Shown here piece after piece: positions 5,316 through 59,308 of a stretch of 64,000 nucleotides of DNA; position 1 is the first letter of the stretch; each line of letters starts with the position of its first letter. Origin of the DNA: Polaromonas sp. 39-63-25 (GTDB lineage: Bacteria > Pseudomonadota > Gammaproteobacteria > Burkholderiales > Burkholderiaceae_C). The stretch spans positions 248,001 to 312,000 of the forward strand of contig NZ_NCJH01000007.1 in assembly GCF_002278925.1 (NCBI RefSeq). Reading direction: 5' to 3'. The notes beneath the pieces are model-generated. The model had not been told where the DNA came from, searched no databases, and saw nothing but the letters and a program-made list of their open reading frames with translations. A program made the position numbers and the translations under genes.

Positions 5316-6611
5316 ATGGAAATTTTCATGGTCGGTGGTGCGGTGCGCGATGCCTTGCTGGGCCTGCCGGTGCAGGACCATGACTGGGTGGTGGTCGGCG
5401 CAACGCCCGACGAACTGACCGCCCTGGGCTATCTGCCGGTGGGCAAGGACTTCCCGGTGTTCCTGCATCCGCAGACGCGCGAGGAGTATGCGCTGGCCCG
5501 CACCGAACGCAACACGGCGCGCGGCTACCGCGGCTTTGCCATCCACGCCGCACCGGACGTGACGCTGGAGGAAGACCTTGCACGCCGCGACCTTACTATC
5601 AATTCAATAGCAGCTCCCGCACATCCTCAAAGAGATGGAGCCGGATTTGAGGCTGATCTTGAAGCGCTCATCGATCCCTACGGCGGACAGGGGGACATCC
5701 GGGACAAGGTTCTGCGCCACGTCACCGACGCCTTTCGCGAGGACCCGGTGCGCATCCTGCGGCTGGCACGTTTTGCCGCGCGCTTCGCCGACTTCACGGT
5801 GGCGCCTGAAACCCTGGCGCTGATGCGCGAGATGGTGGCGCACGGCGAGGTCGATGCCCTGGTGGCCGAACGCGTCTGGCAGGAACTGGCGCGCGGCCTC
5901 ATGGAGGACACGCCGTCCCGCATGTTCGCGGTGCTGCGCGACTGCGGCGCACTGCAGCACCTGCTGCCCGAGGTCGAGAAACTCTGGGGCGTGCCGCAAC
6001 GCCCCGAGTACCACCCCGAAGTGGACACCGGCGTGCACCTGATGATGGTGCTGGACATGGCAGCGCAACTGCAGGCCAGCCTGGCCGTGCGTTTCGCCTG
6101 CCTGGGCCACGACCTCGGCAAGGGCACCACAGCGGTCGAACTGCTGCCCAGACACATCGGCCACGAGGAGCGCAGCGCACGCCTGCTCAAGGGCCTGTGT
6201 GCGCGGCTGCGTGTGCCCACCGAATGCCGGGAGCTGGCCGAAGTGGTGGCACGCGAACACGGCAACATCCACCGCAGCGCCGGATTCGGTGCGGCCGCTC
6301 TGGTGCGCTTGCTGGAGCGTTGCGACGCATTTCGCAAGCCGCAACGTTTTGACGACATCCTGCTGGCTTGCGAATGTGATGCGCGCGGCCGCCTGGGGCT
6401 GGCGAACGCTGCCTATCCGCAGCGGCAGCATCTGGCGCAGGCCTTGCAGGCGGCGCAAGCGGTGGTGACGGCGTCGATCGCAGAAGCAGCGCAGGCGGCA
6501 GGCCTGAGCGGCCCCAAAATCGGCGACAAGATCCATGCCGCCCGGGTGCAGGCCCTCCAGACGTGGATCGACGGTACAGCGGCGCCTGCCGCTACAGCCC
6601 CGTCCGCCTGA
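5316..6611 (+). CDS. cca: Multifunctional CCA-adding enzyme (tRNA nucleotidyltransferase)
   Basis: 431 residues. Adds or repairs the 3'-CCA end of tRNAs and, through its HD domain, carries phosphohydrolase activity. Visible: GGAVRDALLG (7-16), metal-binding Asp21 and Asp23 in QDHDW, RRDLTIN, the DPYGGQGDIRDKVLRHV segment, RILRLARFAARF, and an HD pair at about residues 265-266 (LGHDLGKGTT), so it is the long gammaproteobacterial/betaproteobacterial type. Odd: between RRDLTINSI and IDPYGG there are about 18 extra residues (APAHPQRDGAGFEADLEA) encoded by a copy of repeat A (5596-5660), in frame, in a loop where E. coli Cca has only a few residues. Confidence 0.96.
   Translation: MEIFMVGGAVRDALLGLPVQDHDWVVVGATPDELTALGYLPVGKDFPVFLHPQTREEYALARTERNTARGYRGFAIHAAPDVTLEEDLARRDLTINSIAAPAHPQRDGAGFEADLEALIDPYGGQGDIRDKVLRHVTDAFREDPVRILRLARFAARFADFTVAPETLALMREMVAHGEVDALVAERVWQELARGLMEDTPSRMFAVLRDCGALQHLLPEVEKLWGVPQRPEYHPEVDTGVHLMMVLDMAAQLQASLAVRFACLGHDLGKGTTAVELLPRHIGHEERSARLLKGLCARLRVPTECRELAEVVAREHGNIHRSAGFGAAALVRLLERCDAFRKPQRFDDILLACECDARGRLGLANAAYPQRQHLAQALQAAQAVVTASIAEAAQAAGLSGPKIGDKIHAARVQALQTWIDGTAAPAATAPSA
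5596..5660 (-). repeat. Repeat A copy inside cca
   Basis: About 65 bp with the core CTATCAATTCAATAGCAGCT, then CGCACATCCTCAAAGAG and GAGCCGGATTTGA. In reverse complement this matches the order ATCAAA-GGCC-CAGCCC-GCAGCTAT seen in other copies. It stays in frame and encodes the extra loop of Cca. Confidence 0.75.
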
Positions 6612-6700
6612 CGAGCACAGGGCGTCCTGCAGCGCCGCCTGTGCCAGCAGGGAATCCGGCCTACAGGCGTCGCAGAAAAATTCTGCTAAGGTAGGAAGCG

Positions 6701-7468
6701 ATGCACATGCCCTACGACACGCTCCCCCGTATCGCGCAGGATACGGCGCTTTTTCTGGACTTTGACGGAACCCTGGTTGAGCTGGCCGCCCGGCCCGAAG
6801 CCGTAGTCATTCCGCCCACCCTGACAAGCACGCTGGCTGCGCTGTATGGACAACTCGGCGGCGCGCTGGCGCTGGTATCGGGTCGCCGCCTGAGCGACCT
6901 CGACAGTTTTCTGGCGCCGCTGCAGTTGCCGGCAGCGGTCGAACATGGCGGGCAGCGCCGCAACGCCGACGGTCTCCTGATCAGTGCACCGGCCACGGAT
7001 CTGCGCGATGCGCTGCAGGCGGCCGAAGGGCTGCTGCAGCGCCATCCCGCTCTCCAGCTCGAGCGGAAAAATCTGGCCCTGAGCCTGCACTACCGGCACG
7101 CCCCCGACCTGGAAGACCTGTGCCTGCAGGTGATGGGCGAGGCCGCGGCACGCAGCCCGGGGCTGCAGCTTATACATGGCAAATGTGTGGTCGACCTGAA
7201 GCCCACTGGGGTCAGCAAGGGCACGGCGATTGCGGCCTTCATGGACGAAGCGCCGTTTGCCGGCCGTGTTCCGGTGTTTGCCGGCGACGACGTCACCGAC
7301 GAGGACGGCTTCGAACAGGTGCTGCGCATGGGCGGCCACGCGATCAAGGTCGGCCCCGGACCCACGCTGGCGAAACATCGCTGCGACAACGTGGCGCAAC
7401 TGGCCCAATGGCTGCTGTCGGCACGGGCGCCCGCGCGCGCGAACGGACCGGAACGGCGGCACGCATGA
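6701..7468 (+). CDS. otsB: Trehalose-6-phosphate phosphatase
   Basis: 255-residue HAD-superfamily phosphatase that dephosphorylates trehalose-6-phosphate to trehalose. The catalytic motif LFLDFDGTLVELA places the nucleophile at Asp20 and the general acid at Asp22; motif III/IV appear as KGTAIAAFM and FAGDDVTDEDGFE. An AGGAAG ribosome-binding site sits just upstream of the ATG at 6701 (a second in-frame ATG is at 6707). It overlaps the GH15 gene by ATGA, giving translational coupling, and otsA is the third gene, so this is the trehalose (OtsBA) route used for osmotic and desiccation protection. Confidence 0.95.
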   Translation: MHMPYDTLPRIAQDTALFLDFDGTLVELAARPEAVVIPPTLTSTLAALYGQLGGALALVSGRRLSDLDSFLAPLQLPAAVEHGGQRRNADGLLISAPATDLRDALQAAEGLLQRHPALQLERKNLALSLHYRHAPDLEDLCLQVMGEAAARSPGLQLIHGKCVVDLKPTGVSKGTAIAAFMDEAPFAGRVPVFAGDDVTDEDGFEQVLRMGGHAIKVGPGPTLAKHRCDNVAQLAQWLLSARAPARANGPERRHA

Positions 7469-11338: not shown

Positions 11339-12337
11339 TCAGACCACCAGCGCCAGCGCCGCGTAGTCGCCGACCCGGTCCTGCAGGCCGGCCGGCACCA
11401 GCACAAACCCGTCCGTCAGCGCCGGCAGCCTGCCCCTGATGTGGGCCTGCAGACGCGGCAGCAGGTAATCGCGGTGGTGCCAGAACACGCTGCCGCCGAT
11501 GCTGATGCGCTGCAGGTCCAGCGTCACGACCAGGTTGTACAGGGCCCGGCCCATCACCCGGCATAGATCATTAACAATGGCCACAGCGCCCGTCTCTCCT
11601 GCGCGAGCAGCTATCAAAATAGAAGCAGCATCGGCATACCCGAGCGCGCCAAAACGCCGCGGCATGGCATTGCCCGCCACCAGCGCCTCGACATCGCCGA
11701 TGTTGCCGCAGCCGCACAGCGCATCGTTGTTGTCGCTGACGAACATGTGGCCGGCATGGCCGGCGTTGCCGTTTTTCCCGCGCAGCATCTGCCCGTCGAC
11801 ACACAGGCCGACACCGATGCCGGTGCTCCAGGTCACGTAAGCGCAATGCGCCATGCCCTGCAGCGCGCCCCAGCGGCGCTCAGCCTTGAGCGCAGCCAGG
11901 CCGTCATTTTCAACACGCACCTGGGCGAATACCTCGCGCAGCGGCGCTTCGAGCAAGGCCGTGGTCCAGTCGTTGGGCAGCCCGCGCGCCGCCCCGGCCA
12001 AGCCGCCGCAGATGTTGGGCGCCGCGAGTTCGACCTGGCCATCGTTCAGCACAAAGGGCCCGCAGGACGCCACGCCGACGGCCGCCAGGTCCTCGCAGCG
12101 GATCTGCGCCGCCACGCTGCTTTCCCCGATCATGCGCAGCACCTGCCGCGCCAGCGCATCGCTGACGCCCTCCTTGGCGGTCGGCTCCACCCGCCGGCCC
12201 AGAATGCCGCGCTGATCGACCACGGCAACCGACACCTTGGTGCCGCCTATGTCCACGCAGGCCACCGGGGCGGCGCCGGCAGGCAGGCGAATGTCGGGCC
12301 CGGCGAAGGGCGGAGCGGTCGGTAGAGGGCTGTTCAT
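11339..12337 (-). CDS. ROK family sugar kinase
   Basis: 332-residue protein of the ROK (repressor, ORF, kinase) family without a helix-turn-helix domain, so an enzyme rather than a repressor: ATP-dependent phosphorylation of glucose, N-acetylglucosamine or a related hexose. ATP site: CVDIGGTKVSVAVVD near the start. Sugar/zinc signature: GHAGHMFVSDNNDALCGCGNIGDVEA with the His and CxC ligands (the third expected Cys position reads Asp/Val, so zinc binding may be altered). Catalytic STGIGVGLCVDG is present. A repeat A core (11601-11629) encodes IAARAGETGA near residue 240. Substrate cannot be decided. Confidence 0.88.
   Translation of the reverse strand: MNSPLPTAPPFAGPDIRLPAGAAPVACVDIGGTKVSVAVVDQRGILGRRVEPTAKEGVSDALARQVLRMIGESSVAAQIRCEDLAAVGVASCGPFVLNDGQVELAAPNICGGLAGAARGLPNDWTTALLEAPLREVFAQVRVENDGLAALKAERRWGALQGMAHCAYVTWSTGIGVGLCVDGQMLRGKNGNAGHAGHMFVSDNNDALCGCGNIGDVEALVAGNAMPRRFGALGYADAASILIAARAGETGAVAIVNDLCRVMGRALYNLVVTLDLQRISIGGSVFWHHRDYLLPRLQAHIRGRLPALTDGFVLVPAGLQDRVGDYAALALVV
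11601..11629. repeat. Repeat A core inside the ROK kinase gene
   Basis: GCGCGAGCAGCTATCAAAAT followed by AGAAGCAGC: the GCGC-GAGCAGCTAT half of repeat A with a degenerate distal arm, in frame within the kinase. Confidence 0.55.
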
Positions 12338-14449: not shown

Positions 14450-15244
14450 ATGAACCCAGCGTCTCCCGCTCCTGTTGTTCTCGTTACCGGCGCCGCCAGG
14501 CGACTGGGCCGCGAGATCGCGCTTGCGCTGGCAGCCAGCGGCTGGCGCGTGGCCGTGCACTACCGGAGCTCGGAAGAGGATGCTATTAAAACAGTAGCAG
14601 ACTGCGCACAACTGGCGGGGGATGCAGCCTCTTTTTGCTGTGAACTGGAGGACGAGGCCGCGGTCCGCAGCCTGCTGCCGCAGGTGATCAACCACTTCGG
14701 CCAGGTCGATGCGGTGGTCAACAACGCCTCCACCTTCGAACATGACAGCGCCGCCAGCTTCGGTTTTGCGTCGCTTGAAAAACACATGCGCAGCAACACC
14801 GGCGCGGCGATTGTGCTGGCGCAGGCCCTGCACGCCCACGTGCTGGCGCGGCAGGCCGCCGGGGCGGCGCCTGAGCCAATCGGCCGGTTTGCAGTGATCA
14901 ACCTGCTGGACCAGAAGCTCTGGAACCAGAATCCGGACTTTTTCAGCTACACCCTGTCCAAGGCGGCGCTCGAAGCCGCCAACACCATGCTGGCCATCGC
15001 GCTGGCGCCGCAGCTGCGCGTGGTGGGGGTGGCCCCCGGGCTGACACTGACCAGCCACCTGCTGAGTGACGAAAAATTCCAGGCCCTGCACAAACTCTCG
15101 CCGCTGGGCCGTTCGTCCAGCGCGGCCGACGTGGTGGCCACCGTCAAGTTCGCGCTGGACAATGCCTCCATCACCGGCACCACGCTGCTGGTGGACGGCG
15201 GACAGCACCTGCTGAAATTCGAGCGCGATTTCTCACTGATGTGA
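14450..15244 (+). CDS. Pteridine reductase-like short-chain dehydrogenase
   Basis: 264-residue SDR. The cofactor motif is TGAARRLGREIA, where Arg replaces the usual third glycine; this TGxxxRxG form is typical of NADPH-dependent pteridine reductases (PTR1/FolM type). NNAS, the catalytic Tyr167 and Lys171 (YTLSKAAL) and a C-terminal GTTLLVDGGQHL are present. It precedes folB by 34 bp, strongly suggesting a role in reducing dihydropterin or dihydrofolate in the folate or monapterin pathway. A short repeat A core (14580-14600) lies inside and encodes AIKTVAD. Exact substrate not proven by sequence. Confidence 0.88.
   Translation: MNPASPAPVVLVTGAARRLGREIALALAASGWRVAVHYRSSEEDAIKTVADCAQLAGDAASFCCELEDEAAVRSLLPQVINHFGQVDAVVNNASTFEHDSAASFGFASLEKHMRSNTGAAIVLAQALHAHVLARQAAGAAPEPIGRFAVINLLDQKLWNQNPDFFSYTLSKAALEAANTMLAIALAPQLRVVGVAPGLTLTSHLLSDEKFQALHKLSPLGRSSSAADVVATVKFALDNASITGTTLLVDGGQHLLKFERDFSLM
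14580..14600. repeat. Repeat A core in the pteridine reductase gene
   Basis: ATGCTATTAAAACAGTAGCAG: palindromic core GCTAT...GTAGC of repeat A without the long arm, in frame. Confidence 0.5.
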
Positions 15245-15698: not shown

Positions 15699-16640
15699 AT
15701 GAGTGCCGTATTGAATGAAATGACGAATGACGCAGCCGGTGAAGAAGCGGCGGCCACGGCCAAAGCGGGCCTGAAGATAGAACGCGAGGAACACAAGCTC
15801 GAAAAACGCCTGTGCCGCGAGGTCGGCCGCGCGATTGTGGACTTCAACATGATCGAGGAAGGCGACAAGGTCATGGTTTGCGTCTCGGGCGGCAAGGACA
15901 GCTACGCGATGCTGGACATCCTGCTCAAGCTGCAAAAACGCGCACCCATCAACTTCGAGCTGATCGCCGTCAACCTCGACCAGAAGCAACCCGGCTTTCC
16001 CGACCACATCCTGCCGCAATACCTGGAAAAACTCGGCGTGCCTTTCCACATCGAGACGCAGGACACCTACAGCATCGTCAAGCGCGTGATCCCCGAGGGC
16101 AAGACCATGTGTTCGCTGTGTTCGCGCCTGCGCCGCGGCATTCTGTACCGGGTCGCCGAAGAGCTGGGCGCCACCAAGATCGCGCTGGGCCACCACCGCG
16201 ACGACATGCTGCAGACCTTCTTTCTGAACATGTTTTTTGCCTCCCGCCTCAAGGGCATGCCGCCCAAGCTGGTCAGCGACACCGGCAAACACGTGGTGAT
16301 CCGGCCCATGGCCTATGTGCCTGAGAAGGACCTCATCAAGTGGGCGCAGGTGCGCGACTTTCCGATCATTCCGTGCACGCTGTGCGGCAGCCAGCAGAAC
16401 CTGCAGCGCGTGCAGGTCGGCAACATGCTGCGCGAATGGGACAAGAAGTTTCCGGGCCGCCTGGAGAACATGTTCACCTCGCTGCAAAACGTCGTGCCCT
16501 CGCACCTGATGGACGGCAAGCAGCACGACTTCAAGGGCATACGCAGCACCGGCATGCCGGACCCGGAAGGTGACAAGGCCTTTGACATGGAAGAGTTTTT
16601 TGAACCCGTCCGGCCCGGGCTGGGCGTCGTGACGCTGTAA
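15699..16640 (+). CDS. ttcA: tRNA 2-thiocytidine(32) synthetase TtcA
   Basis: 313 residues. ATP-dependent, Fe-S-dependent enzyme thiolating C32 of certain tRNAs. PP-loop SGGKDS at residues 63-68; cluster-binding CSLC (Cys138, Cys141) and the third region [13 protein letters not shown] (Cys226, Cys229), all conserved in Ttc[18 protein letters not shown] is also diagnostic. Reads 30 bp after folB. Nothing unusual except a slightly extended Ala-rich N-terminus (residues 1-25). Confidence 0.97.
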
Positions 16641-16671
16641 GTTTTACAAGTCATTCAGACCTGGAGGCCTT

Positions 16672-17301
16672 ATGTACAGAGCGCTGAAAGCTATCATTTT
16701 TGCAGCAACCGTGGCGGGACTCCTGGGCGGTTGCGCCAGCACCCGCATGGTCGGCAGCGAGGTCAACAGCTTCGCCCGCTGGGCGCCGGCACCGCCCGCA
16801 CCGGGCAGCAGCTACCGCTTCGAGCGTTTGCCCTCGCAGCAGGCGGACATATCCCAAGCCCGGCTGGAAGGACTGACCCAGGCCGCGCTGGCCAGAGTGG
16901 GCCTGCAGCACAACCCGCAGGCGGCCAGCCTGAGCGTGCAGGTCAGCGCCAGCTCCCAGCCCATGCTGCGCTCGCGCTGGGACGGCGGCTATTACCCTTA
17001 TGGCGGTGGTCCCAACATCTTCATCGGCGGCGGCAGCGGCGTGGGTGTCAGCAATGTTGGTGTGGGTTTCGGCTTCGGTTTTCCGCTGGGCGGCATGGAC
17101 ACGCCGATTTACCGGCGCGAAGTCAGCATCGTGATGCGCGAGCTGCGCAGCAACGTGGCCGTGTATGAAACACGCGCGGTCAGCGAGGAACCCTGGCTGG
17201 ACACCGACCCGGTGCTGTCGGCCATGCTGGACGCCGCCCTGCGCGGCTTCCCGGTGCCGCCGGCCGGCCCGCGCCGAATCAATGTCGAGGTCAAGCCTTG
17301 A
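16672..17301 (+). CDS. DUF4136-like outer-membrane/periplasmic lipoprotein
   Basis: 209 residues with a lipoprotein signal peptide ending LLGGC; the lipidated residue would be Cys22. The body fits DUF4136: FARW, SSYRFERLPSQQ, a Gly-rich central loop (FIGGGSGVGVSNVGVGFGFG) and the C-terminal AMLDAALRGFPVPP. Family function unknown. Part of the signal peptide (KAIIFAAT) is encoded by a repeat A core at 16687-16707. Its stop overlaps the TTG start proposed for the histidine phosphatase. Confidence 0.82.
   Translation: MYRALKAIIFAATVAGLLGGCASTRMVGSEVNSFARWAPAPPAPGSSYRFERLPSQQADISQARLEGLTQAALARVGLQHNPQAASLSVQVSASSQPMLRSRWDGGYYPYGGGPNIFIGGGSGVGVSNVGVGFGFGFPLGGMDTPIYRREVSIVMRELRSNVAVYETRAVSEEPWLDTDPVLSAMLDAALRGFPVPPAGPRRINVEVKP
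16687..16707. repeat. Repeat A core in a signal peptide
   Basis: AAAGCTATCATTTTTGCAGC resembles the GCTAT...GCAGC core of repeat A and supplies hydrophobic residues of the lipoprotein signal sequence. Short, so chance resemblance is possible. Confidence 0.35.
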
Positions 17302-20123: not shown

Positions 20124-21848
20124 ATGACCCCAAGCCAGATCATCGTTCTCGCCACACCCGTCTTCTTTCTGCTGATCGCGATCGAGTTCGCCTGGGGCTA
20201 CGCGAAGGGCCGCAACACCTACCGCCTCAACGACGCGATCAACAGCATCAGCCTGGGCATGCTCAGCCAGGTCAGCGCGGTGTTCACGCGGCTGTTTCGC
20301 ATCGGCATCTACACCGCCATCTATTCGTCGATGGCGCTGTTTCCTGACGAAGCCTTCTGGACCACCTGGTACGGCTGGCTGATCGCCCTGGTTTTCTACG
20401 ACTTCTGCTACTACTGGCTGCACCGCGCCGGCCACGAAAGCGCCGTCTTCTGGGCCGCGCATGTGGTGCATCACCAGAGCCAGGACTACAACCTGTCCAC
20501 CGCACTTCGCCAGACCAGCAGCGGCGCGCTGCTCGGCTGGATTTTTTATGTGCCGATGGCGATTGCCGGTGTGCCGCCGCTGGTCTTCGGCGTGGTGGTG
20601 CTGATCGACCTGCTTTACCAGTTCTGGGTGCATACCGAACACGTGCCCAAGCTCGGCTGGTTCGACCGCTGGTTCTGCTCGCCCTCCAACCACCGCGTGC
20701 ACCACGCAGTCAACGACAACTATGTCGACAGGAACTACGGCGGCATCCTGATCATCTGGGACCGGCTCTTCGGCAGCTTCCGCGAGGAAGACGAGAAATG
20801 TATTTACGGCACACGCAGCCCGCTCAACAGCTGGGACCCGCTGTGGTCCAACACCGAGGTGTACTGGGCCCTGGCCAAAGACTCCTGGCATGCCAGGAAC
20901 TGGGGTGACAAGCTGCGTATCTGGTTCAAGCCGCCTGGTTGGCGCCCTGCTGACGTGACGGCACGTTTTCCGAAACCGCCTTTTGACATCACGCGGCTGG
21001 AGCGTTACCACCCACCCATGACCCGCACCCTGATGTGGTTCGGCGCCGTGCAGTTTGCCCTTCTGTTGCAGGGCGTCGCCCTGTTCCTCTGGTACGCCGA
21101 CGGCCTGCCGGCCTTGCAGTCGGCCGTCTGGCTGGGGGCGCTGGCGACAGGGCTCTGGGCCGTGGGCGGCGCGCTGCAGGGCCGCCTGACGATGACCGAG
21201 GTGCTGCTGATCGAGGCCGCCGCGCTGGCGACGGCGACCAGCGTCCTTGGGCTGGTGGAGCTGCACCGCGTGTTCAAGCCGCTGGCGCTTTGTTTTGCTC
21301 TTGTTTTTGTAGCTGCTCGCGCATACCCCATAAGGGCTGTTGGCCGATTTGATCTGCTTTTGGGGGCAGGTCTGGTCTTTTCCCTCGCCGGCGATGTTCT
21401 CCTGATGTTTCCCGGTTTCTTCATCCCCGGCCTGCTGTCTTTCCTGGTCGCCCACCTGTTCTACATTGCCCTGTTCAAGCAGGGCCAGGCCTGGTTTCCC
21501 AGCCGGCGCGCGCTGGCGGTGACGCTGGGCGTGGGTGCGCTGATGTACGCCTTCCTGTTTGCCGGGCTCAACCCGGTGCTGCGTTTTGCCGTGGCCGCCT
21601 ACGTGATCGTGATTGCACTGATGGCCGCGCAGGCGATCGGCCGGGCCACGGTGCTGCGTGACAAGGCTTCACTGGGCGTGGCCGTCGGTGCCGGCTTTTT
21701 CATGCTCAGTGACGCGCTGCTGGCCACCAACAAGTTCGCCCAGCCCCTGCCCATGGCCCAGCTGTGGGTGCTGGGCACCTACTACCTCGCGCAAGTCCTG
21801 ATCGTGCACAACGCGCGGCCTGCCACTGCAGGGGAGCGGGCGGGCTGA
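20124..21848 (+). CDS. Sterol desaturase/alkylglycerol monooxygenase-like domain fused to YhhN lysoplasmalogenase-like domain
   Basis: 574 residues, two membrane enzymes in one chain. N-terminal half: fatty acid hydroxylase/sterol desaturase fold with the three His clusters LHRAGHE (from His100), HVVHHQ (from His113) and HRVHHAV (from His190) that bind the diiron centre, in the pattern of alkylglycerol monooxygenase-like proteins. C-terminal half (about 310-560): eight hydrophobic helices with the YhhN/TMEM86 motifs LVFSLAGDVLLM, SFLVAHLFYIALF and GFFMLSDALLATN, including the two Asp residues typical of lysoplasmalogenases. Both mammalian counterparts cut ether lipids, so a combined ether-lipid or plasmalogen-type catabolic role is a reasonable inference. 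Repeat A (21291-21353) forms residues about 390-410. Confidence 0.88.
   Translation: MTPSQIIVLATPVFFLLIAIEFAWGYAKGRNTYRLNDAINSISLGMLSQVSAVFTRLFRIGIYTAIYSSMALFPDEAFWTTWYGWLIALVFYDFCYYWLHRAGHESAVFWAAHVVHHQSQDYNLSTALRQTSSGALLGWIFYVPMAIAGVPPLVFGVVVLIDLLYQFWVHTEHVPKLGWFDRWFCSPSNHRVHHAVNDNYVDRNYGGILIIWDRLFGSFREEDEKCIYGTRSPLNSWDPLWSNTEVYWALAKDSWHARNWGDKLRIWFKPPGWRPADVTARFPKPPFDITRLERYHPPMTRTLMWFGAVQFALLLQGVALFLWYADGLPALQSAVWLGALATGLWAVGGALQGRLTMTEVLLIEAAALATATSVLGLVELHRVFKPLALCFALVFVAARAYPIRAVGRFDLLLGAGLVFSLAGDVLLMFPGFFIPGLLSFLVAHLFYIALFKQGQAWFPSRRALAVTLGVGALMYAFLFAGLNPVLRFAVAAYVIVIALMAAQAIGRATVLRDKASLGVAVGAGFFMLSDALLATNKFAQPLPMAQLWVLGTYYLAQVLIVHNARPATAGERAG
21291..21353 (-). repeat. Repeat A copy inside the desaturase/YhhN gene
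   Basis: Full-length copy: TTTTTGTAGCTGCTCGCGCA then CCCCATAAGGGCTGTTGGCC and GATTTGAT. In reverse complement it reads ATCAAATCGGCCAACAGCCC ... GCGAGCAGCTAC, almost the consensus. In frame, encoding a loop plus helix edge between YhhN segments. Confidence 0.85.
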
Positions 21849-30085: not shown

Positions 30086-31099
30086 TTGATTCTTCGCCAC
30101 ACTTTCACCCCGCCGAACAACACCCGCATGGGCCACCTGTGCGGCCCCATGGACTCGCACATCCGCACCGTCGAGGCGGCGCTGCAGGTCACGATTGCGC
30201 ACCGCTTCGAGCAGTTCAAGATCGACGGACCCAAGGCCAAAGCGCAGCAGGCACTGGAAGTGCTGCAGGCGCTGTATGAAATGGCGCAACGCCCGATTCC
30301 CGAGGAAACCGTGCAGCTGATGCTGGCCGGCGACACCGCGCTGAGCATCGCCCCCGACGGCGCGATGGCGCTGTCCACCCGCCGCGCCGACCTGCGTGCG
30401 CGCACCACCAACCAGGGCGCCTACCTGGAAAACATCGCCACCCACGACATCACCTTCGGCATCGGCCCGGCCGGCACCGGCAAAACCTACCTGGCCGTGG
30501 CTTGCGCGGTCGATGCGCTGGAGCGCAGCGCGGTGCAGCGCATCGTGCTGACGCGCCCGGCGGTCGAGGCCGGTGAGCGTCTGGGCTTTCTTCCGGGCGA
30601 CCTGAACCAGAAGGTGGACCCCTACCTGCGCCCGCTGTATGACGCGTTGTACGAACTGATGGGTTTTGAACGTGTGCAGAAAGCCTTCGAGCGCCAGCAG
30701 ATCGAAATCGCGCCGCTGGCCTTCATGCGCGGGCGCACGCTGAACCACGCCTTTGTGATCCTCGACGAGGCGCAGAACACCACCCCCGAGCAGATGAAGA
30801 TGTTTTTGACGCGCATCGGCTTTGGCGCCAAGGCGGTGATCACCGGCGACGTCAGCCAGGTCGATTTGCCGCGCACCCAGCTCAGTGGCTTGATTGATGC
30901 CGAACGTGTCCTCAAGCGCGTCAAGGGCATTGCCATCACCCGCCTGACCAGCGCCGACGTGGTGCGGCACCCGCTGGTGGCGCGCATCGTGGACGCCTAT
31001 GACGGCTACAAGGGCAAAACCCCGGGCATAGCCGACGCTATCGATTCGATAGTGCCTGTCGCCCGCCCCACAAGGACAAAAAGCCGAAATGGCTCTTAA
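30086..31099 (+). CDS. PhoH-like ATPase
   Basis: 337 residues from the TTG at 30086; an upstream GTG (29996) would add 30 unlikely residues, mostly Pro/Ser/Cys-rich. PhoH domain: Walker [34 protein letters not shown], Walker [21 protein letters not shown], and [10 protein letters not shown]. Cytoplasmic ATPase linked to RNA metabolism. It overlaps ybeY, the usual partner in proteobacteria, where the pair acts in ribosome or RNA quality control. The last ~20 residues ([13 protein letters not shown]) include a palindromic repeat A core. Confidence 0.92.
31037..31055. repeat. Repeat A core at the 3' end of the phoH-like gene
   Basis: GCTATCGATTCGATAGTGC: near-perfect palindrome GCTATCGA-TTCGATAG, in frame, encoding AIDSIVP. 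Confidence 0.55.
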
Positions 31100-31544
31100 A
31101 CAGCTGAGCCTGTCGCTGCAGTTCGGCGACATCAAGGACGCCAAACGCCACCGCGCCGCCCTGCCGCGCCACAGCGTGGCGCGCTGGATACGCCATGCGC
31201 TGGACAGCGATGCCGAGATCACCGTGCGTATCGTGGACGCCGAAGAAGGCCAGGCGCTGAACCGCGGCTACCGGCAAAAAGACTACGCCACCAACGTGCT
31301 GACCTTCGACTACACCCTGGCACCGCTGGTCACGGCCGACCTGGTGCTGTGTGCGCCGGTGATAGCCAAAGAGGCGCGCGAGAACAGGAAAACATTACAG
31401 GCGCACTATGCGCACCTGCTGGTGCACGGCGTGCTGCATGCGCAGGGCTGGGACCATGAGACGGGTGAGGCTGATGCGCAGGCCATGGAAGCGCGCGAGA
31501 TTGAAATCCTCGCCGGCCTGGGCGTCAAAAACCCTTACCGCTGA
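31089..31544 (+). CDS. ybeY: Endoribonuclease YbeY (16S rRNA maturation factor)
   Basis: 151 residues. Single-strand endoribonuclease acting in 16S rRNA 3' maturation and late 70S quality control. The zinc-binding motif [12 protein letters not shown] (H-x3-H-x5-H) is intact, preceded by the conserved [17 protein letters not shown]. The first codons overlap the end of the phoH-like gene by 11 bases, so translation is coupled. Between this gene and dtd lies a full repeat A copy. Confidence 0.96.
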
Positions 31545-31554
31545 GTTTTCATGT

Positions 31555-31611
31555 ATCAAATTGGCCATCAGCCCTTATCGGGCGGTCGCCAACAGCTATT
31601 AAATCGATAGC
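31555..31611 (+). repeat. Full repeat A copy between ybeY and dtd
   Basis: ATCAAATTGGCCATCAGCCC, TTATCGGGCGGTCGCC, AACAGCTATTAAATCGATAGC. This copy is close to the apparent consensus. Its distal end contains the stop codon and the last codons (PLSI) of dtd on the opposite strand. Confidence 0.85.
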
Positions 31612-32051
31612 GGATCCATGCGCAAGGGAATCGTCACCGGCCCGTCATTGACCAGGTGGACCTGCATGTCCGCGGCAAACTGGCCGGTCTCTACCTGCGG
31701 ATGCGCCAGCCGTGCCTGAGCTACAAAGTAGTTATACAGCCGGCGCCCCTCATCCGGCGCCGCTGCACCGGTGAAGCTGGGCCGGTTGCCGCCCGACACA
31801 TCGGCGGCCAGTGTGAACTGGCTGACGACAAGCAGGCCGCCGGCCACGTCCTGCACGCTGCGGTTCATCTTGCCGGCCTCGTCTGAAAAAATACGCAGCT
31901 TGAGGATTTTTGCCAGCAGCTTGTCGGCCTGGGCATCGCTGTCGCCGCGCTCGGCGCACAGCAGCACCAGCAAGCCGGCGCTGATCTGGCCAACCACTTC
32001 ACCGTCCACCACCACACGCGCCTGGCTGACGCGCTGTATCACGCTGATCAA
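31599..32051 (-). CDS. dtd: D-aminoacyl-tRNA deacylase
   Basis: 150 residues. Removes D-amino acids (and glycine mischarged on tRNA-Ala) from tRNAs. N-terminus [21 protein letters not shown], the active-site signature [17 protein letters not shown] and the cross-subunit Gly-cisPro segment NDGPVTIPL are clear. The final residues DPLSI and stop are encoded by repeat A sequence, so the native C-terminus seems to have been rewritten, though these residues follow the last conserved motif. Overlaps the CDF transporter gene by 4 bases. Confidence 0.95.
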
Positions 32052-41944: not shown

Positions 41945-42943
41945 ATGTTCAGTTATCGCCACGCCTTCCATGCCGGCAACCATGCCGATGTGCTCAAGCA
42001 CACCACGCTGATTGCGTTGATGAAGTATTTGACCCAGAAAGACACGGCGCTGACCGTGATCGACACGCACGCCGGCGCCGGGCTGTACCGCCTCGACGGC
42101 GACTACACCGAAACCAGCGGCGAAGCGCAGGAGGGCATTTTTCGCCTGGTCTCTGCATCAAAAGCGCCCACAACCCTTTCTGCATCAGCGCCAGCAGCTA
42201 CCAAAAAAGTAGCGACCTCCAAAACGCCAGGCGCAGCAAAAGCAGCGGCCGACGAACCCCTGGCCCCCGCGCTGCAGGACTATATCGACCTGCTGCGCGG
42301 CCTGAACCCGCAGTTCGCCGCAAGCGGTGATCCGGCGCACCTGAAGATTTACCCCGGCTCGCCGTTCATCGAGCAGCAATTCCTCAGCGGCCGCGACAAG
42401 CTCAAGCTGTTTGAACTGCACCCGACCGATTTCAAGTCGCTGACCGGCAACATCGCGCAACTGGGCGTGGGCCGCCAGGTCACGGTGGCGTGCGAGGACG
42501 GCTTTGAGGTGCTGAAGACCTTTTTGCCGCCGCCGGCGCGCCGTGCCATGGTGCTGTGCGATCCGAGCTACGAGATCAAGAGCGACTACGCCCGCGTCGC
42601 GGCCTGCATGGGCGATGCCGTCAAGCGTTTTGCCACCGGCACCTATGTGGTCTGGTACCCCATCATTCCGCGCCCCGAGGCCCATGACCTGCCGCGCAAG
42701 CTCAAGACGCTGGCGACCAAGGCGGGCCGCAGCTGGCTCAACGCCACGCTCACGGTCAAGTCCAGCAAGCTGACCACCGACGAGGCCGGCGACATCAAAC
42801 GCCCGGGCCTGCCGGCCAGCGGCATGTTTGTGATCAACCCGCCGCACACGCTCAAGGCCGACCTGCAGGCGGCCCTGCCGCAGCTGGTGGCGCGCCTGGG
42901 ACAGGACCGCAACGCCGGCTTCACGCTGGACCACGGCGGCTGA
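41945..42943 (+). CDS. rlmJ: 23S rRNA (adenine(2030)-N6)-methyltransferase RlmJ
   Basis: 332 residues, against about 280 in the family. N-terminus MFSYRHAFHAGNHADVLKH, SAM-binding IDTHAGAGLY, and the catalytic LCDPSYEIKSDY (DPPY-type) are clear. The extra ~45 residues (KAPTTLSASAPAATKKVATS and following Ala/Lys-rich stretch) sit after EGIFRLVSAS and correspond to an in-frame repeat A copy (42157-42213) plus flanking low-complexity sequence, in the position of the family's helical insertion domain. Core enzyme looks intact. Confidence 0.94.
   Translation: MFSYRHAFHAGNHADVLKHTTLIALMKYLTQKDTALTVIDTHAGAGLYRLDGDYTETSGEAQEGIFRLVSASKAPTTLSASAPAATKKVATSKTPGAAKAAADEPLAPALQDYIDLLRGLNPQFAASGDPAHLKIYPGSPFIEQQFLSGRDKLKLFELHPTDFKSLTGNIAQLGVGRQVTVACEDGFEVLKTFLPPPARRAMVLCDPSYEIKSDYARVAACMGDAVKRFATGTYVVWYPIIPRPEAHDLPRKLKTLATKAGRSWLNATLTVKSSKLTTDEAGDIKRPGLPASGMFVINPPHTLKADLQAALPQLVARLGQDRNAGFTLDHGG
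42157..42213 (+). repeat. Repeat A copy inside rlmJ
   Basis: ATCAAAAGCGCCCACAACCC, TTTCTGCATCAGCGCC, AGCAGCTACCAAAAAAGTAGC: same order of blocks as the ybeY-dtd copy, in frame, about 57 bp. Confidence 0.8.
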
Positions 42944-47796: not shown

Positions 47797-48921
47797 ATGT
47801 CTGTTCCGCACTTTCACCCGCTGGTCGTCACACGCGTCACCCCCGAAGCGGCCGGGGCCGTGGCCGTCAGCTTTGCGATTCCGCCCGAGCTGCGTAGCCT
47901 GTATGGCTTTACGCCGGGTCAGTTCCTCACGCTCAAGGCCACCATAGACGGCGAGCCGGTGCGCCGCAGCTACTCCATCTGCAGCAGCACCCAGCGCCTG
48001 GCCGCAGAACACGACATCGAGGTCGGCATCAAACCGGTCGAAGGCGGGGTCTTCTCCAACTGGGCCACGCAGCTGCAGCCCGGCGACACCCTGGACGTGA
48101 TGCCGCCGGACGGCCGCTTCACGCCGCGCCTGAGCGGTGCGGTGCACCGCGTCGGTTGGGCCGCCGGCTCGGGCATCACGCCGCTGCTGTCCATCATCGC
48201 CAGCACGCTGGCCGGCGAGCCGCAGGCCACCTTCACGCTGGTGTACTGCAACCAGCGCACCGGCAGCATCCTGTTCAATGAAGCGCTGCAGGATCTCAAG
48301 GACCGTTATCCGTCCCGCCTGAGCCTGGTCCACCTGCTCTCGCGCCAGTCGCAGGATGTGCCGCTGTTCAACGGCCGGCTCGACGCGGCCAAGGTCAGCG
48401 AACTGCTGGCCACGCTGATTCCGCCGGCCAGCATCGACGAGACCTTTGTCTGCGGTCCGGAAGCCATGATCGAAGGCTGCCTGCAGGCCCTGCTGGCGGC
48501 CGGCGTGCCGAAGGAACGCATCCACGCCGAGCGTTTCACCAGCGCGGCGCAACCCGCCAACGCTATGAAATCAGGAGCTGCTGACGCAAAAGGGACGGGG
48601 GCTGAAGGCCAAAAAGGCTTGAAAAACGAAGGGGCCATTGGCGCCATCCGCCTGTCGGTGCAGCTCGACGGCAAGGCGCATGAGTTGCGCATGCACGCGC
48701 ACGAACGTGTGCTGGACGTGGCCTTGGCCGCCGGCCTGGACCTGCCCTACAGCTGCAAGGGCGGCGTCTGCTGCACCTGCCGCGCCAAGGTGCTCGAGGG
48801 ACAGGTCGCCATGGAAAAAAACTTCACGCTGGAAGACTGGGAAGTGCAAAAAGGTTTTGTGCTGAGCTGCCAGGCGCGGCCCCTGAGCGACAGCGTGTCC
48901 ATCAGTTACGACGACAGATAA
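47797..48921 (+). CDS. paaE: 1,2-phenylacetyl-CoA epoxidase reductase subunit PaaE
   Basis: 374 residues. Electron-transfer subunit: ferredoxin-NADP reductase-like part with flavin motif RRSYSICSS and NAD(P)-binding GWAAGSGITPLLSI, then a plant-type [2Fe-2S] ferredoxin domain with CKGGVCCTC and a distal Cys in VLSCQ. The linker between domains (ANAMKSGAADAKGTGAEGQK) is built from repeat A (48561-48623), making the protein some 15-20 residues longer than usual. Last gene of the operon; downstream are repeat B fragments. Confidence 0.96.
   Translation: MSVPHFHPLVVTRVTPEAAGAVAVSFAIPPELRSLYGFTPGQFLTLKATIDGEPVRRSYSICSSTQRLAAEHDIEVGIKPVEGGVFSNWATQLQPGDTLDVMPPDGRFTPRLSGAVHRVGWAAGSGITPLLSIIASTLAGEPQATFTLVYCNQRTGSILFNEALQDLKDRYPSRLSLVHLLSRQSQDVPLFNGRLDAAKVSELLATLIPPASIDETFVCGPEAMIEGCLQALLAAGVPKERIHAERFTSAAQPANAMKSGAADAKGTGAEGQKGLKNEGAIGAIRLSVQLDGKAHELRMHAHERVLDVALAAGLDLPYSCKGGVCCTCRAKVLEGQVAMEKNFTLEDWEVQKGFVLSCQARPLSDSVSISYDDR
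48561..48623 (-). repeat. Repeat A copy forming the PaaE interdomain linker
   Basis: CGCTATGAAATCAGGAGCTG, CTGACGCAAAAGGGACGGGG, GCTGAAGGCCAAAAAGGCTT. Contains the GCTAT-AGCTGCT-GCGC-GGGCTG-AGGCC block order of the reverse-oriented consensus. Confidence 0.85.
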
Positions 48922-52665: not shown

Positions 52666-52758
52666 GTTAAAAATTTTTCTGCTGGCACCCGGATATTGGC
52701 ACGGCGGGCATCCCTCTGCGCAGGTTATGAAAAGGGCGATATCCCAAAGCAAAAATAT

Positions 52759-52806
52759 GCCATCAACCCTTGTGCAGTGGAACCAGGTAGCTATTAATAA
52801 CATAGC
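52759..52806 (+). repeat. Repeat A copy in the gbsR upstream region
   Basis: GCCATCAACCCTTGTGCAGT, GGAACCAGGTAGCTATTAAT, AACATAGC: the CATCA-CCCTT block and the GCTAT...ATAGC core. Intergenic. The rest of 52666-52870 shows nothing else recognisable. Confidence 0.7.
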
Positions 52807-52870
52807 AAAGAAAATCCGCGATGCCAGACATTGCTGCCGGGTGCGGGATACCAACAACTGAGGCCGGCGC

Positions 52871-54017: not shown

Positions 54018-54030
54018 GTTTTGACCTTAA

Positions 54031-54093
54031 TTTGCTATCTATTCAGGAGCTGCTACCGAACGTGAAATAAGGGCTTGAGGCCAATTTCACATC
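54031..54093 (-). repeat. Repeat A copy between the GNAT gene and rlpA
   Basis: TTTGCTATCTATTCAGGAGC, TGCTACCGAACGTGAAATAA, GGGCTTGAGGCCAATTTCAC. Intergenic, in reverse orientation; close to full length. Confidence 0.8.
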
Positions 54094-54100
54094 AAAATAT

Positions 54101-55616: not shown

Positions 55617-56615
55617 TCAGTCGTCTTTGTCGCGGCGTTTGCCGCGCGCCGGGCCGTGCTGGCCCGCGTGGGCTTCTTCAGAGTCCTCGTGCGCCTCATG
55701 CATCGCGCGTAGCTCGCTGCGCGGCGTGCGTTTGGCGGCCTTGCGCGGCGGCGCCGCCGGTAGCGGCTGGTCTTCGCCGACTGTGCTTTGGCCTTTGACC
55801 GCGTGAATGAAAAACTCGCGATTGCCGTCGCCGCCTTCAATCGGCGAGGCCAGCCAGGCTTTCACGTCCAGCCCCAACGCAGCGCAGGCATCACGCAGGC
55901 GTTTCTCGACAAATTCGAAATGCACGGCATCACGCACAATGCCACCCTTGCCGATCTGGCCGGGCTGCAACTCGAACTGGGGTTTGACCAGCATCAGCAG
56001 ATGACCGCCGGCTTTCAGCAGGCGCACCACGGCGGGCAACACCAGCGTCAGGGAAATAAAGGACAGGTCGCCGGTCAGGAAATCAAAGTCGGCTTCGACG
56101 GCCTCGCCTTCGTCCACCTCGAAGTCATCACCATCGTCAAATTGACCTTCAGCCTCCGCCGTATGGACGGGACCCGCTATCAAATCAGAAGCAGTCATGG
56201 ACCGCGCGTTAAGGCCTTCGATGCACACCACACGCGGGTCGCCGCGCAGGCTGGGGTGCAGCTGGCCATGGCCCACATCCACGCCCACCACCTCCACAGC
56301 ACCGTGCTGCAGCAGGCAGTCGGTGAAGCCACCGGTGGATTGCCCGATGTCCAGGCAGCGCAGACCGGCCACGCTCAGGCCGGTGCTTTTGAGCGCACCT
56401 TCAAGCTTGAGCCCGCCGCGCGAGATGTACTTGGCTTCCGTGGTGTCGGGAATCTGCAGCTCGGCGCCTTCAGGAATTTCGTCGCCGTTTTTGGCGACTT
56501 TCTTCCAGGGCGCACTTTCCTCGGCGCGCCACAACACGCCCGAAGCGATCAGGCGCTGGGCCTGGGAACGGGTGGCGGCAAAGCCGTTGTCGACGAGGAA
56601 GAGGTCAGCGCGCAT
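55617..56615 (-). CDS. tlyA: TlyA family rRNA/RNA methyltransferase
   Basis: 332 residues. S4 domain (MRADLFLVDNGFAATRSQAQRL), then the FtsJ-like domain: KYISRGGLKLEGAL, SAM motif CLDIGQSTGGFTDCLLQHGA, DLSFISLTLVLPAV and LVKPQFEL. TlyA proteins 2'-O-methylate rRNA. Longer than the usual ~250-270: an acidic insertion of ~40 residues (SDLIAGPVHTAEAEGQFDDG and DDFEVDEGEAVE) sits after CIEGLNARSM, beginning with a repeat A core; and the C-terminal ~60 residues are a charged Lys/Arg/Glu/His tail. Lies between ahcY and metF. Confidence 0.93.
   Translation of the reverse strand: MRADLFLVDNGFAATRSQAQRLIASGVLWRAEESAPWKKVAKNGDEIPEGAELQIPDTTEAKYISRGGLKLEGALKSTGLSVAGLRCLDIGQSTGGFTDCLLQHGAVEVVGVDVGHGQLHPSLRGDPRVVCIEGLNARSMTASDLIAGPVHTAEAEGQFDDGDDFEVDEGEAVEADFDFLTGDLSFISLTLVLPAVVRLLKAGGHLLMLVKPQFELQPGQIGKGGIVRDAVHFEFVEKRLRDACAALGLDVKAWLASPIEGGDGNREFFIHAVKGQSTVGEDQPLPAAPPRKAAKRTPRSELRAMHEAHEDSEEAHAGQHGPARGKRRDKDD
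56173..56196. repeat. Repeat A core in tlyA
   Basis: CCCGCTATCAAATCAGAAGC then AGTC: half core of repeat A at the border of the acidic insertion, in frame. Confidence 0.55.
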
Positions 56616-58204: not shown

Positions 58205-58313
58205 TGGGGTATCTCCAAGATCAAGGGTCCAATTGGGCAAAATAGCCACGGCCACAAGGCGACAAGTCGGCGGGGAGTCGGTTGGATCTCACCCGGCTTG
58301 AAAGCACATGCGG

Positions 58314-58380
58314 GTGAGCGTGGTTGCAAATGAAAGTCCTGAGCCTAGACCACATGTTGTGGGTTGCAACGCTCCTCAGG
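58314..58380 (-). ncRNA. S-adenosylhomocysteine (SAH) riboswitch
   Basis: Minus-strand leader of ahcY. Sequence blocks match the class: CCTGAGGAGCGTTGCAACC, then TAGGCTCAGG pairing with CCTGAG, then TTGCAACCACGCTCAC whose GCAACCACGCTC re-pairs with GAGCGTTGC to form P1. Downstream, CTCACCCG (sharing CTCAC with the P1 3' strand) can pair with CGGGTGAG, a plausible expression platform. SAH binding is expected to raise ahcY expression. Confidence 0.88.
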
Positions 58381-58388
58381 AATCGACG

Positions 58389-58416: not shown

Positions 58417-59240
58417 TGAAAGCCCTGAAAACCTGGCCAGCACACGACCGGCAACACATCACCGGCGTTTTTACCGACATCGACGACACCCTGACCACCG
58501 ACGGCGCGATCACGCCCGATGCGCTGCAGGCCCTTGGCGACCTGAAGGCCGCCGGCCTGCATGTGATTCCCATCACCGGGCGGCCGGTCGGCTGGAGCGA
58601 GCCTTTTGCGCTGCGCTGGCCGGTGGATGCCATCGTTGCCGAAAACGGTGCCGTGGCCCTGCTTGCAAGCCAGATTGGGCATCAGCCCTCGACTGACGGG
58701 CGTGAGCCGCTATCAAAACTGTATCAGCAGGACGCACCGACACGCCTGGCCAACTACGCCCGCATGCAACAGGTGGCCCGGCGTGTGATGCAGGACGTGC
58801 CCGGCGCCGTGTTGTCCGAAGACAGCCCAGGACGCGAAACCGACATCGCCATCGACCACAGCGAGTTTGTGCACCTGCCACCGGAAAGCATCGCCCATGC
58901 CGTGCAGATCATGCAAAGCGAGGGCATGAACGCGACAGTGAGCTCCATCCACATCAACGGCTGGTTCGGCGCACACAACAAGCTGGAGGGTGCACGCTGG
59001 ATCGTCCGTGAATTGTTCGGCCGCGACCTGGACAGCGAAATGGACCGCTGGGTCTATGTCGGCGACTCGACCAACGACCAGCTGATGTTCGAGGCCTTCG
59101 CGCATTCGGTCGGCGTGGCCAACATCCGCCGCTTTGAAGCGGAGTTGAGCCACAAGCCGCGTTACATCACCGAGGGGGAGCGCGGCGCAGGCTTTGCCGA
59201 AGTGGCGGCGGCGCTGCTGGCGGCGCGTGATCCCGGCTGA
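58416..59240 (+). CDS. HAD-IIB family phosphatase
   Basis: 274 residues. HAD motif I FTDIDDTLTTDG, motif II IPITGRPVGW, a Cof-type (C2B) cap, and motif IV YVGDSTNDQLMFEAFAHSVG. Resembles sugar-phosphate phosphatases such as mannosyl-3-phosphoglycerate or sucrose phosphatase relatives; substrate not determined. ATG 58416 is chosen; the frame upstream runs over the antisense riboswitch. A repeat A copy (58670-58728) encodes QIGHQPSTDGREPLSKLYQQ in the cap domain, so that loop is longer than in relatives. Confidence 0.88.
   Translation: MKALKTWPAHDRQHITGVFTDIDDTLTTDGAITPDALQALGDLKAAGLHVIPITGRPVGWSEPFALRWPVDAIVAENGAVALLASQIGHQPSTDGREPLSKLYQQDAPTRLANYARMQQVARRVMQDVPGAVLSEDSPGRETDIAIDHSEFVHLPPESIAHAVQIMQSEGMNATVSSIHINGWFGAHNKLEGARWIVRELFGRDLDSEMDRWVYVGDSTNDQLMFEAFAHSVGVANIRRFEAELSHKPRYITEGERGAGFAEVAAALLAARDPG
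58670..58728 (+). repeat. Repeat A copy inside the HAD phosphatase gene
   Basis: CCAGATTGGGCATCAGCCCT, CGACTGACGGGCGTGAGCCG, CTATCAAAACTGTATCAGC. Full-length copy in forward orientation, in frame. Confidence 0.8.
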
Positions 59241-59252
59241 CATGACAGACAA

Positions 59253-59308
59253 AATAAGGCCGTAGCCCTTATGGATCGTGCGCCAAAAGCTATAAATTCA
59301 ATAGCAAT
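59253..59308 (+). repeat. Repeat A copy after the HAD phosphatase gene
   Basis: AATAAGGCCGTAGCCCTTAT, GGATCGTGCGCCAAAAGC, TATAAATTCAATAGCAATGG. Intergenic, 12 bp after the stop; a second copy within 600 bp. Confidence 0.75.

What the first reader, a model, noticed from the sequence alone, without database searches (positions are those of the whole stretch)
5596..59308. A short repeat (repeat A) has inserted in frame into many conserved genes
At least 15 copies share ordered blocks: ATCAAAttGGCC - CAtCAGCCC - TTAT - GGGCG - GCGCnAGCAGCTAT - AAATnnATAGC. Long copies: 5596, 21291, 31555, 42157, 48561, 52759, 54031, 58670, 59253. Core-only copies: 11601, 14580, 31037, 46988, 56173 and perhaps 16687. 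Most lie inside reading frames without breaking them, in cca, rlmJ, paaE, tlyA, a HAD phosphatase and others. The inserted peptides fall in loops, linkers or termini. This behaves like the palindromic coding elements of Rickettsia, but the sequence is different. Either the element has an open frame in several phases and is mobile, or it is a hot spot for gene conversion.
Basis: partly seen in the sequence, partly recalled or inferred. Interest (0 to 1): 0.85.

Follow-up and report, generated by a model that had tools for sequence, protein, structure and literature searches.

The report
Genome-wide DNA recognition motif with dialects
A roughly 70-base DNA signature repeated several hundred times in a Polaromonas-like genome appears mostly not to be inserted jumping DNA but a signal written in place over existing sequence and spelled differently in related species, much like the DNA-uptake signals of other bacteria.

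Summary
The genome looks like a Polaromonas. 'Inserted mobile element' mostly fails: in PaaC, a ROK kinase, a pteridine reductase, MerR and YhhN the copy costs 0-3 residues; the YhhN site carries the motif in 11 of 22 aligned genomes with no 22-residue step. Some genes gain 6-23 residues. The copies behave as a double-stranded DNA recognition motif: fixed register, position-specific constraint, a dyad consensus without overall arm covariation, mostly nearest-neighbour dependence. Against close relatives 9 of 16 tested sites keep the motif score despite 10-22 substitutions. Genomes have dialects: at 6 sites shared with a congener the copies sit in the same place and strand; 6 of 6 own and 4 of 6 other copies fit their own genome's dialect. 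OS-4's best 150 matches split 149 chromosome, 1 plasmid. Nearest analogue: uptake signal sequences (USS/DUS); uptake is untested. Rivals: chromosome-organising site, old insert. No hairpin or RAYT link was found; no description was found in the papers searched.

The parts
5591..5661 (-). motif copy in cca (tRNA nucleotidyltransferase), codons about 92-115
   Evidence: same length and a weaker site in G099
11560..11630 (+). copy, mainly right half, in a ROK-family kinase gene; no gap against solved ROK kinases
   Evidence: G099 has no site there at the same length
14578..14648 (-). motif copy in a pteridine reductase (SDR); net +2 aa against FolM
   Evidence: drifts from G153 as random decay would; site present in G099
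16640..16710 (+). motif copy between two genes (ttcA-like and a lipoprotein, names recalled), overlapping the start of the second
   Evidence: orthologous site in G153 and G099
21293..21363 (-). motif copy inside the YhhN domain of a fatty acid hydroxylase-YhhN fusion; 17 substitutions from G153 with the score unchanged
31033..31103 (-). motif copy at the end of the phoH-like gene and start of the ybeY-like gene (names recalled)
   Evidence: no site in G099
31545..31615 (+). strongest window copy, between the ybeY-like and dtd-like genes and overlapping the end of the latter; G099 has a site here in its own dialect
42147..42217 (+). motif copy in an rlmJ loop
46939..47009 (+). copy, mainly right half, in paaC; no gap against E. 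coli PaaC
   Evidence: drifts from G153 as random decay would
48558..48628 (-). motif copy in the linker before the Fer2 domain of a paaE-like gene
52740..52810 (+). motif copy, intergenic
   Evidence: not alignable in relatives
54030..54100 (-). motif copy between two convergent genes; 20-21 substitutions from relatives with the motif score largely kept
56126..56196 (+). motif copy in a loop of a tlyA-like gene (FtsJ-family methyltransferase)
58659..58732 (+). motif copy in a HAD phosphatase loop that is longer in carriers
59239..59309 (+). motif copy between the HAD gene and the convergent gene beyond it

Best explanation
Repeat A is a long (about 66-71 bp), roughly dyad-symmetric, double-stranded DNA recognition sequence. 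Several hundred copies (about 600-800 in three sampled genomes) lie on both strands of the chromosome, in spacers, at gene ends, in loops and sometimes in conserved folds. Shown by sequence: copies have fixed register, are constrained position by position, are rewritten in place by substitution, and share a genome-specific dialect. Inferred: one trans-acting DNA-binding factor reads the motif and its specificity sets the dialect; copies arise where coding constraint is loose and are kept or improved by selection or molecular drive. Of the known systems that behave like this, DNA uptake signals of competent bacteria (USS/DUS) fit best, so the most likely function is self-DNA recognition in natural transformation. 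I put about 0.7 on 'motif read in trans and maintained in place' and about 0.4 on uptake as the function.
For: (1) Register: of 80 right-module sites >= 14 bits (reversed control 1), 58 have the left module at the exact spacing, none of the rest is rescued by a shift of 1-3, 19 score below 0 on the left; left modules >= 14 bits without a right one: 3 of 59, with 3 control hits for that module (matrices trained partly on these copies). (2) 63 copies carry 54 bits over 71 columns, from 63/63 (columns 52, 53, 65) to background (columns 35-36). (3) In 111 copies the strongest mutual information is between neighbouring bases (15-16, 31-32, 40-41: AAA-TTT type swaps); few pairs further apart (31-38, 32-38, 18-34) reach the null maximum. 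(4) Consensus dyad about column 36, clearest in G004, without overall covariation of the arms: z -2.1, -0.5, 0.0. (5) Motif-preserving substitution against G153/L133: 9 of 16 sites at P < 0.02, e.g. L083:5545, 22 substitutions, 65.2 to 59.9 bits where random placement costs 60.7; 5 of 5 unique sites G004-G142 at P <= 0.025. (6) Dialects: columns 29, 31, 39-44 differ between G000, G099, G004 and OS-4; leave-one-out assignment of own and G099 sites 66/72 and 72/78. (7) 6 of 13 own sites with alignable surroundings have a G099 site at the same place and strand, identity 0.52-0.83; leave-one-out, own copies fit the own dialect 6/6, G099 copies theirs 4/6, one tie, one exception. (8) YhhN site: motif in 11 of 22 aligned genomes without a length step. 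(9) OS-4: 149 of the best 150 matches on the chromosome, 1 on the 305 kb plasmid, about 11 expected by length. (10) Passages on uptake sequences describe point-mutational origin, coding and non-coding places, no orientation bias and dialects.
Against: No uptake, binding or competence evidence; receptor and competence genes were not searched. The motif is far longer than the 9-12 bp cores of USS/DUS, and 54 bits far exceed what is needed to mark about 700 sites. PGI, carboxyltransferase, HAD and tlyA loops are longer by 6 or more aa. Two sites (14578, 46939) drift from G153 as random decay would and 5 more of the 16 are not significant. Unconstrained columns of intergenic sites diverge about 2.4 times faster than 4-fold sites (0.336 against 0.138), which neither uptake drive nor simple selection explains; 3 of 17 comparisons show the opposite. 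Single pairs do covary: own 53-65 (resting on one copy), own 20-52 and G004 29-43. The single plasmid match of OS-4 is its best match of all, and two weaker sites lie near it.
Confidence: 0.6

Rival explanations
1. A chromosome-organising or nucleoid-protein binding site: the same kind of trans-read motif, but selected for a role inside the cell rather than for DNA uptake.
For: The motif-level evidence fits equally; chromosome bias and dyad symmetry suit a dimeric DNA-binding protein.
Against: No clear strand pattern along the sampled G004 chromosome (inspected, no test run); many sites are inside genes and only 6 of 13 are shared with G099.
Confidence: 0.25
2. An old mobile element family (MITE- or Rickettsia palindromic element-like) that inserted in frame and is now decaying.
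For: Longer loops in HAD, tlyA, PGI and a carboxyltransferase; patchy distribution, 23 of 150 family genomes with >= 100 core matches.
Against: No length step in several folds; fixed register; even the best copies differ in the same columns; little long-range linkage; dialect change in place at orthologous sites; plasmid depletion in OS-4.
Confidence: 0.1
3. A family homogenised by gene conversion between copies.
For: Many sites diverge faster than their flanks, with fairly sharp edges, yet stay in the family.
Against: No near-identical pairs among sampled copies: maximum identity 0.761 of 6105 pairs of 111 own copies against 0.749 in block-shuffled data; 0.746 against 0.724 for 136 G004 sites; these samples are a fraction of all copies. 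Transition/transversion 1.04 at unconstrained columns of intergenic sites, where block replacement would give about 0.5 (my estimate).
Confidence: 0.04
4. A REP-like hairpin mobilised by a RAYT (TnpA-REP) transposase, or an RNA element.
For: The own genome has one Y1_Tnp match in an open frame of 238 codons; the consensus is an imperfect palindrome.
Against: No overall pairing covariation; RNAalifold gives 3 pairs; 8 of 19 sites found in 20 RAYT surroundings (175.5 kb) lie within 1 kb of the gene where about 5.0 are expected by length (counted by hand); G095 and G141, rich in core matches, are not among the 112 of 150 genomes with a Y1_Tnp match; no Rfam family at gathering score in the window but a SAH riboswitch.
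Confidence: 0.03

Closest known systems
Uptake signal sequences / DNA uptake sequences (USS of Pasteurellaceae, DUS of Neisseriaceae)
   Same: Hundreds of dispersed copies on both strands, in and between genes, core plus AT-rich stretches, in-place origin, lineage dialects (passages of PMC1939737, PMC3630211 and PMC7811141 seen).
   Different: 66-71 bp instead of a 9-12 bp core with AT-rich flanks; dyad consensus; one site per about 6 kb; no uptake shown.
Rickettsia palindromic elements (RPE)
   Same: Found in frame in many unrelated genes.
   Different: RPEs are inserts of about 150 bp (passage of PMC10969869); this motif mostly overlays existing codons.
BRE, Beta-proteobacterial repeat element (Hot et al. 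2011, PMC3110155, section read)
   Same: Comamonadaceae including Polaromonas JS666; some copies inside coding sequences.
   Different: BRE is about 90 bp, mean GC 69%, sometimes tandem; repeat A has mean GC 0.49 (0.38-0.59 in 72 copies). The GC-rich repeat at 9290-9435 resembles BRE more; BRE's sequence itself was not at hand.
REP/BIME elements with RAYT transposases
   Same: Imperfect palindromic consensus, hundreds of copies.
   Different: No overall hairpin covariation, no clear RAYT flanking, many copies inside genes.

Membership tests
USS/DUS uptake sequences | Hundreds to thousands of dispersed copies on both strands | tested here: met
   about 760 (own), 634 (G004), 825 (G099) per genome, extrapolated from 400-464 kb samples; core matches 151 forward, 133 reverse
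USS/DUS uptake sequences | Arise and change in place by point mutation, not by insertion | tested here: inconclusive
   fits PaaC, ROK, SDR, MerR, YhhN and 6 orthologous G099 sites; HAD, tlyA, PGI and carboxyltransferase loops are longer
USS/DUS uptake sequences | Lineage dialects shared by the copies of a genome | tested here: met
USS/DUS uptake sequences | Short core (9-12 bp) | tested here: not met
   right module about 30 bp, full motif 66-71 bp
USS/DUS uptake sequences | Enhances uptake by competent cells; cognate receptor | not testable with these tools
   needs uptake and binding assays; receptor and competence genes were not searched
Rickettsia palindromic elements / MITEs | Insertion that lengthens the target, with empty sites or target duplications | tested here: inconclusive
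   no length step in several genes, longer loops in others; no clean empty site seen in the alignments, target duplications not tested systematically
REP / RAYT | Hairpin structure with pairing | tested here: not met
   (single pairs excepted)
REP / RAYT | Association with a RAYT gene | tested here: not met
   8 near-gene sites against about 5.0 expected
BRE | About 90 bp, GC 64-79% | tested here: not met
   66-71 bp, GC 0.38-0.59
Rfam RNA families | Match above gathering score | tested here: not met
   only RF01057 SAH riboswitch in the window

The most novel reading that the evidence does not exclude
A further, independent DNA-uptake (self-recognition) code, in the family of Polaromonas and Rhodoferax: a 66-71 bp dyad-symmetric signal, far longer than USS or DUS, written in place at 600-800 chromosomal sites, with dialects that change in concert at fixed positions even within one genus, and with locally accelerated substitution inside many sites.
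Probability: 0.35. Interest if true: 0.9.

Novelty: new variant of a known kind. Interest (0 to 1): 0.77.

Why it matters
The passages seen describe uptake codes in two families, Pasteurellaceae and Neisseriaceae; one more, with a much longer motif, would make the old question of why uptake codes exist testable by comparison. If it is instead an intracellular binding site, it is a large unrecognised chromosome-wide DNA-binding system. Either way, dispersed sites change dialect together without copying, a natural experiment on how a trans-acting reader rewrites a genome, including protein-coding sequence.

Tried and rejected
Replication-strand bias: '+' hits in the listing seemed to cluster in half of single-contig genomes; the sampled chromosome of G004 shows both strands along its length, so I take the pattern for an artefact of the truncated listing. 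In the own sample sites split 23 '+' to 36 '-', not pursued. 'G099 is a low-copy sister' (my early note) is wrong: it has about 825 sites in another dialect. A hairpin between columns 27-33 and 39-45, suggested by the dialect consensus, shows no clear covariation within genomes. One search wasted a stricter core pattern on G004, whose dialect lacks the last base. Note 3 says about 25 copies of the 575 bp repeat in G099; the listing shows 19 distinct places. Note 7 gives 5.8 expected RAYT-near sites; the recount gives about 5.0.

Rows dropped or weak: the two rows for 58662 were in the wrong register; the site was redone at 58659 (P 0.074). Of the 16 sites tested against G153/L133, 7 are not significant: three had only 3 substitutions (16640, 31033, L083:17459), two decayed as random (14578, 46939), two are borderline (56126, 58659); 31545 and L083:15175 gave no alignment, and 5591, 11560 and 52740 none against G153. 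The scoring matrix was trained on copies that include the own copies tested. rows contain duplicates (both orientations, overlapping stretches); 5 sites are unique and one has 2 gap columns. The OS-4 dialect rests on its 30 best matches to the Polaromonas model, the G004 one partly on stretches chosen around hits. Of the 7 own sites without a G099 site, some may map to paralogues or repeats. Net lengths from Pfam are over whole domains; there PaaC is +6, the pteridine reductase +4, an aminopeptidase +6, a second carboxyltransferase +3 and PGI -20. In one search, 5 of 28 sequences gave no alignment and one place occurs twice (22 distinct). Plasmid and phage searches used one own copy as query and would miss other dialects. 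The JS666 genome paper that reports MITEs (cited in PMC10969869) is not held. Gene names ttcA, phoH, ybeY, dtd, ahcY and uvrA come from the finding or from recall, not from a call.
Full report
OBSERVATION. The window is G000:C32:248001-312000 of a 4.83 Mb genome; the nearest named records at one window gene are Polaromonas. The core pattern GCGCNAGCAGCTAT with up to one mismatch occurs 284 times in the genome against 12 for the reversed pattern. A profile retrained on 464 kb finds 73 sites there and none in reversed sequence, about 760 per genome, and the same 15 in the window.

ANATOMY. The unit is 66-71 bp: a TTT tract, an AAA (or TTT) tract, GGCCT-CAGCCCTT, a variable middle, GCGCAAGCAGCTAY, a W tract, RTAGC. 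Information is 54 bits but very uneven: columns 52, 53 and 65 are invariant in 63 of 63 copies (two exceptions each at 53 and 65 in the larger set of 111), columns 35-36 are background. Right and left modules sit in one register: 58 of 80 right-module sites have the left module at exact spacing, none of the rest is rescued by a shift of 1-3, 19 score below 0 on the left; left modules without a right one are at control level. RNAalifold finds 3 pairs. The strongest mutual information in 111 copies is between adjacent bases; a few pairs further apart just reach the null maximum. The consensus is an imperfect dyad about column 36, clearest in G004, but the arms do not covary overall (z -2.1, -0.5, 0.0), with single pairs as exceptions (own 20-52 z 3.1, G004 29-43 z 2.4). 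This looks like independent reading of two half-sites by a protein; that a protein reads it is inference.

IN PLACE OR INSERTED. PaaC aligns to E. coli PaaC without a gap across the copy, the ROK kinase likewise to solved ROK kinases; the pteridine reductase is +2 aa there against FolM; MerR is +1 and YhhN +3 over the Pfam domain. PGI is +6 and a carboxyltransferase +7 aa; Cca is +8 against distant enzymes but equal to G099. The element would add 22-24 aa. Orthologues of equal or nearly equal length without the motif exist at the ROK, PaaC and phoH sites. YhhN is the broadest test: among 22 aligned genomes, 11 carry the motif at this place (>= 10 bits) with 0 to +11 aa relative to the window, and 11 do not, with -3 to +9 aa; two of the latter have exactly the window's length. 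Against this, the HAD loop is 78-114 bp in 14 motif-bearing genes and 57-90 bp in 20 without a match; the tlyA loop is 99-234 bp in 14 bearing genes and 36-273 bp, commonly 48, in the rest. So the motif mostly overlays sequence, with added loop length in some genes.

CONSTRAINT AND SPEED. Against relatives about 7% diverged (G153 and L133), many sites carry many substitutions yet keep the motif: intergenic 54030, 20-21 substitutions, 69.3 to 55.0 or 65.5 bits where random placement would cost 57-59; the YhhN site, 17 substitutions, 60.6 to 61.4; L083 sites 4953, 5545, 13020 and 18839, 15-22 substitutions, P <= 0.0005. In all, 9 of 16 sites are significant at P < 0.02; the other 7 are listed under Tried and rejected. 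Gaps inside the site occur in 1 of 17 comparisons (tlyA). The pair G004-G142, another genus, repeats this at 5 of 5 unique sites at P <= 0.025, one of them with 2 gap columns. Many sites diverge faster than their surroundings: the seven intergenic comparisons 0.18-0.29 against 0.03-0.14 in flanks, while 3 of 17 comparisons (16640, 31033, L083:17459) show less. Unconstrained columns of intergenic sites diverge by 0.336 against 0.138 at 4-fold sites and 0.107 in other intergenic DNA of the window. Sampled copies are not recent copies of each other. The acceleration is unexplained; a bound footprint that mutates faster is one guess.

DIALECTS. Genome-wide consensus differs between genomes: column 29 is C in G000 and in its congener G099, G in G004, mixed in OS-4; columns 40-41 are AA in G004; column 41 is T and column 43 mostly G in G099. 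Leave-one-out, columns 31-50 assign 66 of 72 own and 72 of 78 G099 sites correctly. Thirteen own sites have alignable surroundings in held G099 sequence; 6 have a G099 site at the same place and strand, identity 0.52-0.83, where two sites of the own genome share 0.536 on average. Leave-one-out, own copies fit the own dialect in 6 of 6; G099 copies fit theirs in 4 of 6, with one tie and one exception. Dispersed sites thus change spelling together without moving or copying, which points to a reader acting in trans.

DISTRIBUTION. Of 150 family genomes 23 have >= 100 core matches (counted by hand); the pattern is dialect-bound and undercounts (G099: 37 matches, about 825 sites by its own model). 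In 117 genomes of other families of the order no genome exceeds 31 matches, with controls of similar size. One of 72,556 plasmids and one of 50,697 phage records match one own copy, the latter at E 0.004. In OS-4, 149 of the best 150 matches are chromosomal and 1, the best of all, is on the 305 kb plasmid, about 11 expected by length; in the 150 kb of plasmid read there are three sites, all at about 206-211 kb beside a housekeeping block flanked by transposases.

WHAT IT WORKS LIKE. Passages seen describe uptake sequences as dispersed, in and between genes, arising by point mutation in unconstrained parts, without orientation bias, and with species dialects. The motif shares these traits and differs in length and symmetry. 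I do not file it as USS/DUS: uptake is untested and the short core is not met. RPE/MITE, REP/RAYT, BRE and RNA readings were considered and are listed with the features tested. Paper searches (listings and abstracts), with passages or one section, showed no description of this motif; PMC12306157 and PMC3733652 do not hold the genus names searched. Subscription papers, among them the JS666 genome paper, were not available.

Noticed in passing
window 12609-13184: A MITE-like inverted-repeat element of about 575 bp with matches at 19 distinct places in G099.
   Followed up: partly
window 9290-9435, also 35899-35985 and 49036-49097: A GC-rich repeat of about 90 bp (GC 0.68 at 9340-9435, 0.79 at 35899-35985), tandem in G099 at 92-96 bp spacing; it resembles the published BRE.
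   Followed up: partly
window 48917-49106: A repeat of about 180 bp with many matches in G000 and G153, part of it also repeated alone.
   Followed up: no
window 56670-56729 and 59330-59436: Two further short dispersed repeats, about 53 bp and 97 bp, in G000, G153 and G155.
   Followed up: no
window 58309-58383 (-): SAH riboswitch upstream of the gene used as query, which I take for ahcY.
   Followed up: no
window 20124-21848: A fusion of a fatty acid hydroxylase domain with a YhhN domain.
   Followed up: no
L083 4953-5615: Two motif sites in the same orientation bracket a repeat of about 500 bp with more than 20 matches in G153.
   Followed up: no
motif sites, own genome against G153 and G004 against G142: Unconstrained columns of intergenic motif sites diverge about 2.4 times faster than 4-fold sites, with the rise mainly inside the motif.
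   Followed up: partly
L272 (plasmid of OS-4) 21782-26321: A chromosomal-type block metZ-purF-cvpA-dedD-folC lies between Tn3 and IS91 transposases on the plasmid.
   Followed up: no
G015:C1: 20 Y1_Tnp matches, several with equal scores and split into two adjacent pieces, in the genome with the most core matches of the motif among the 150.
   Followed up: no
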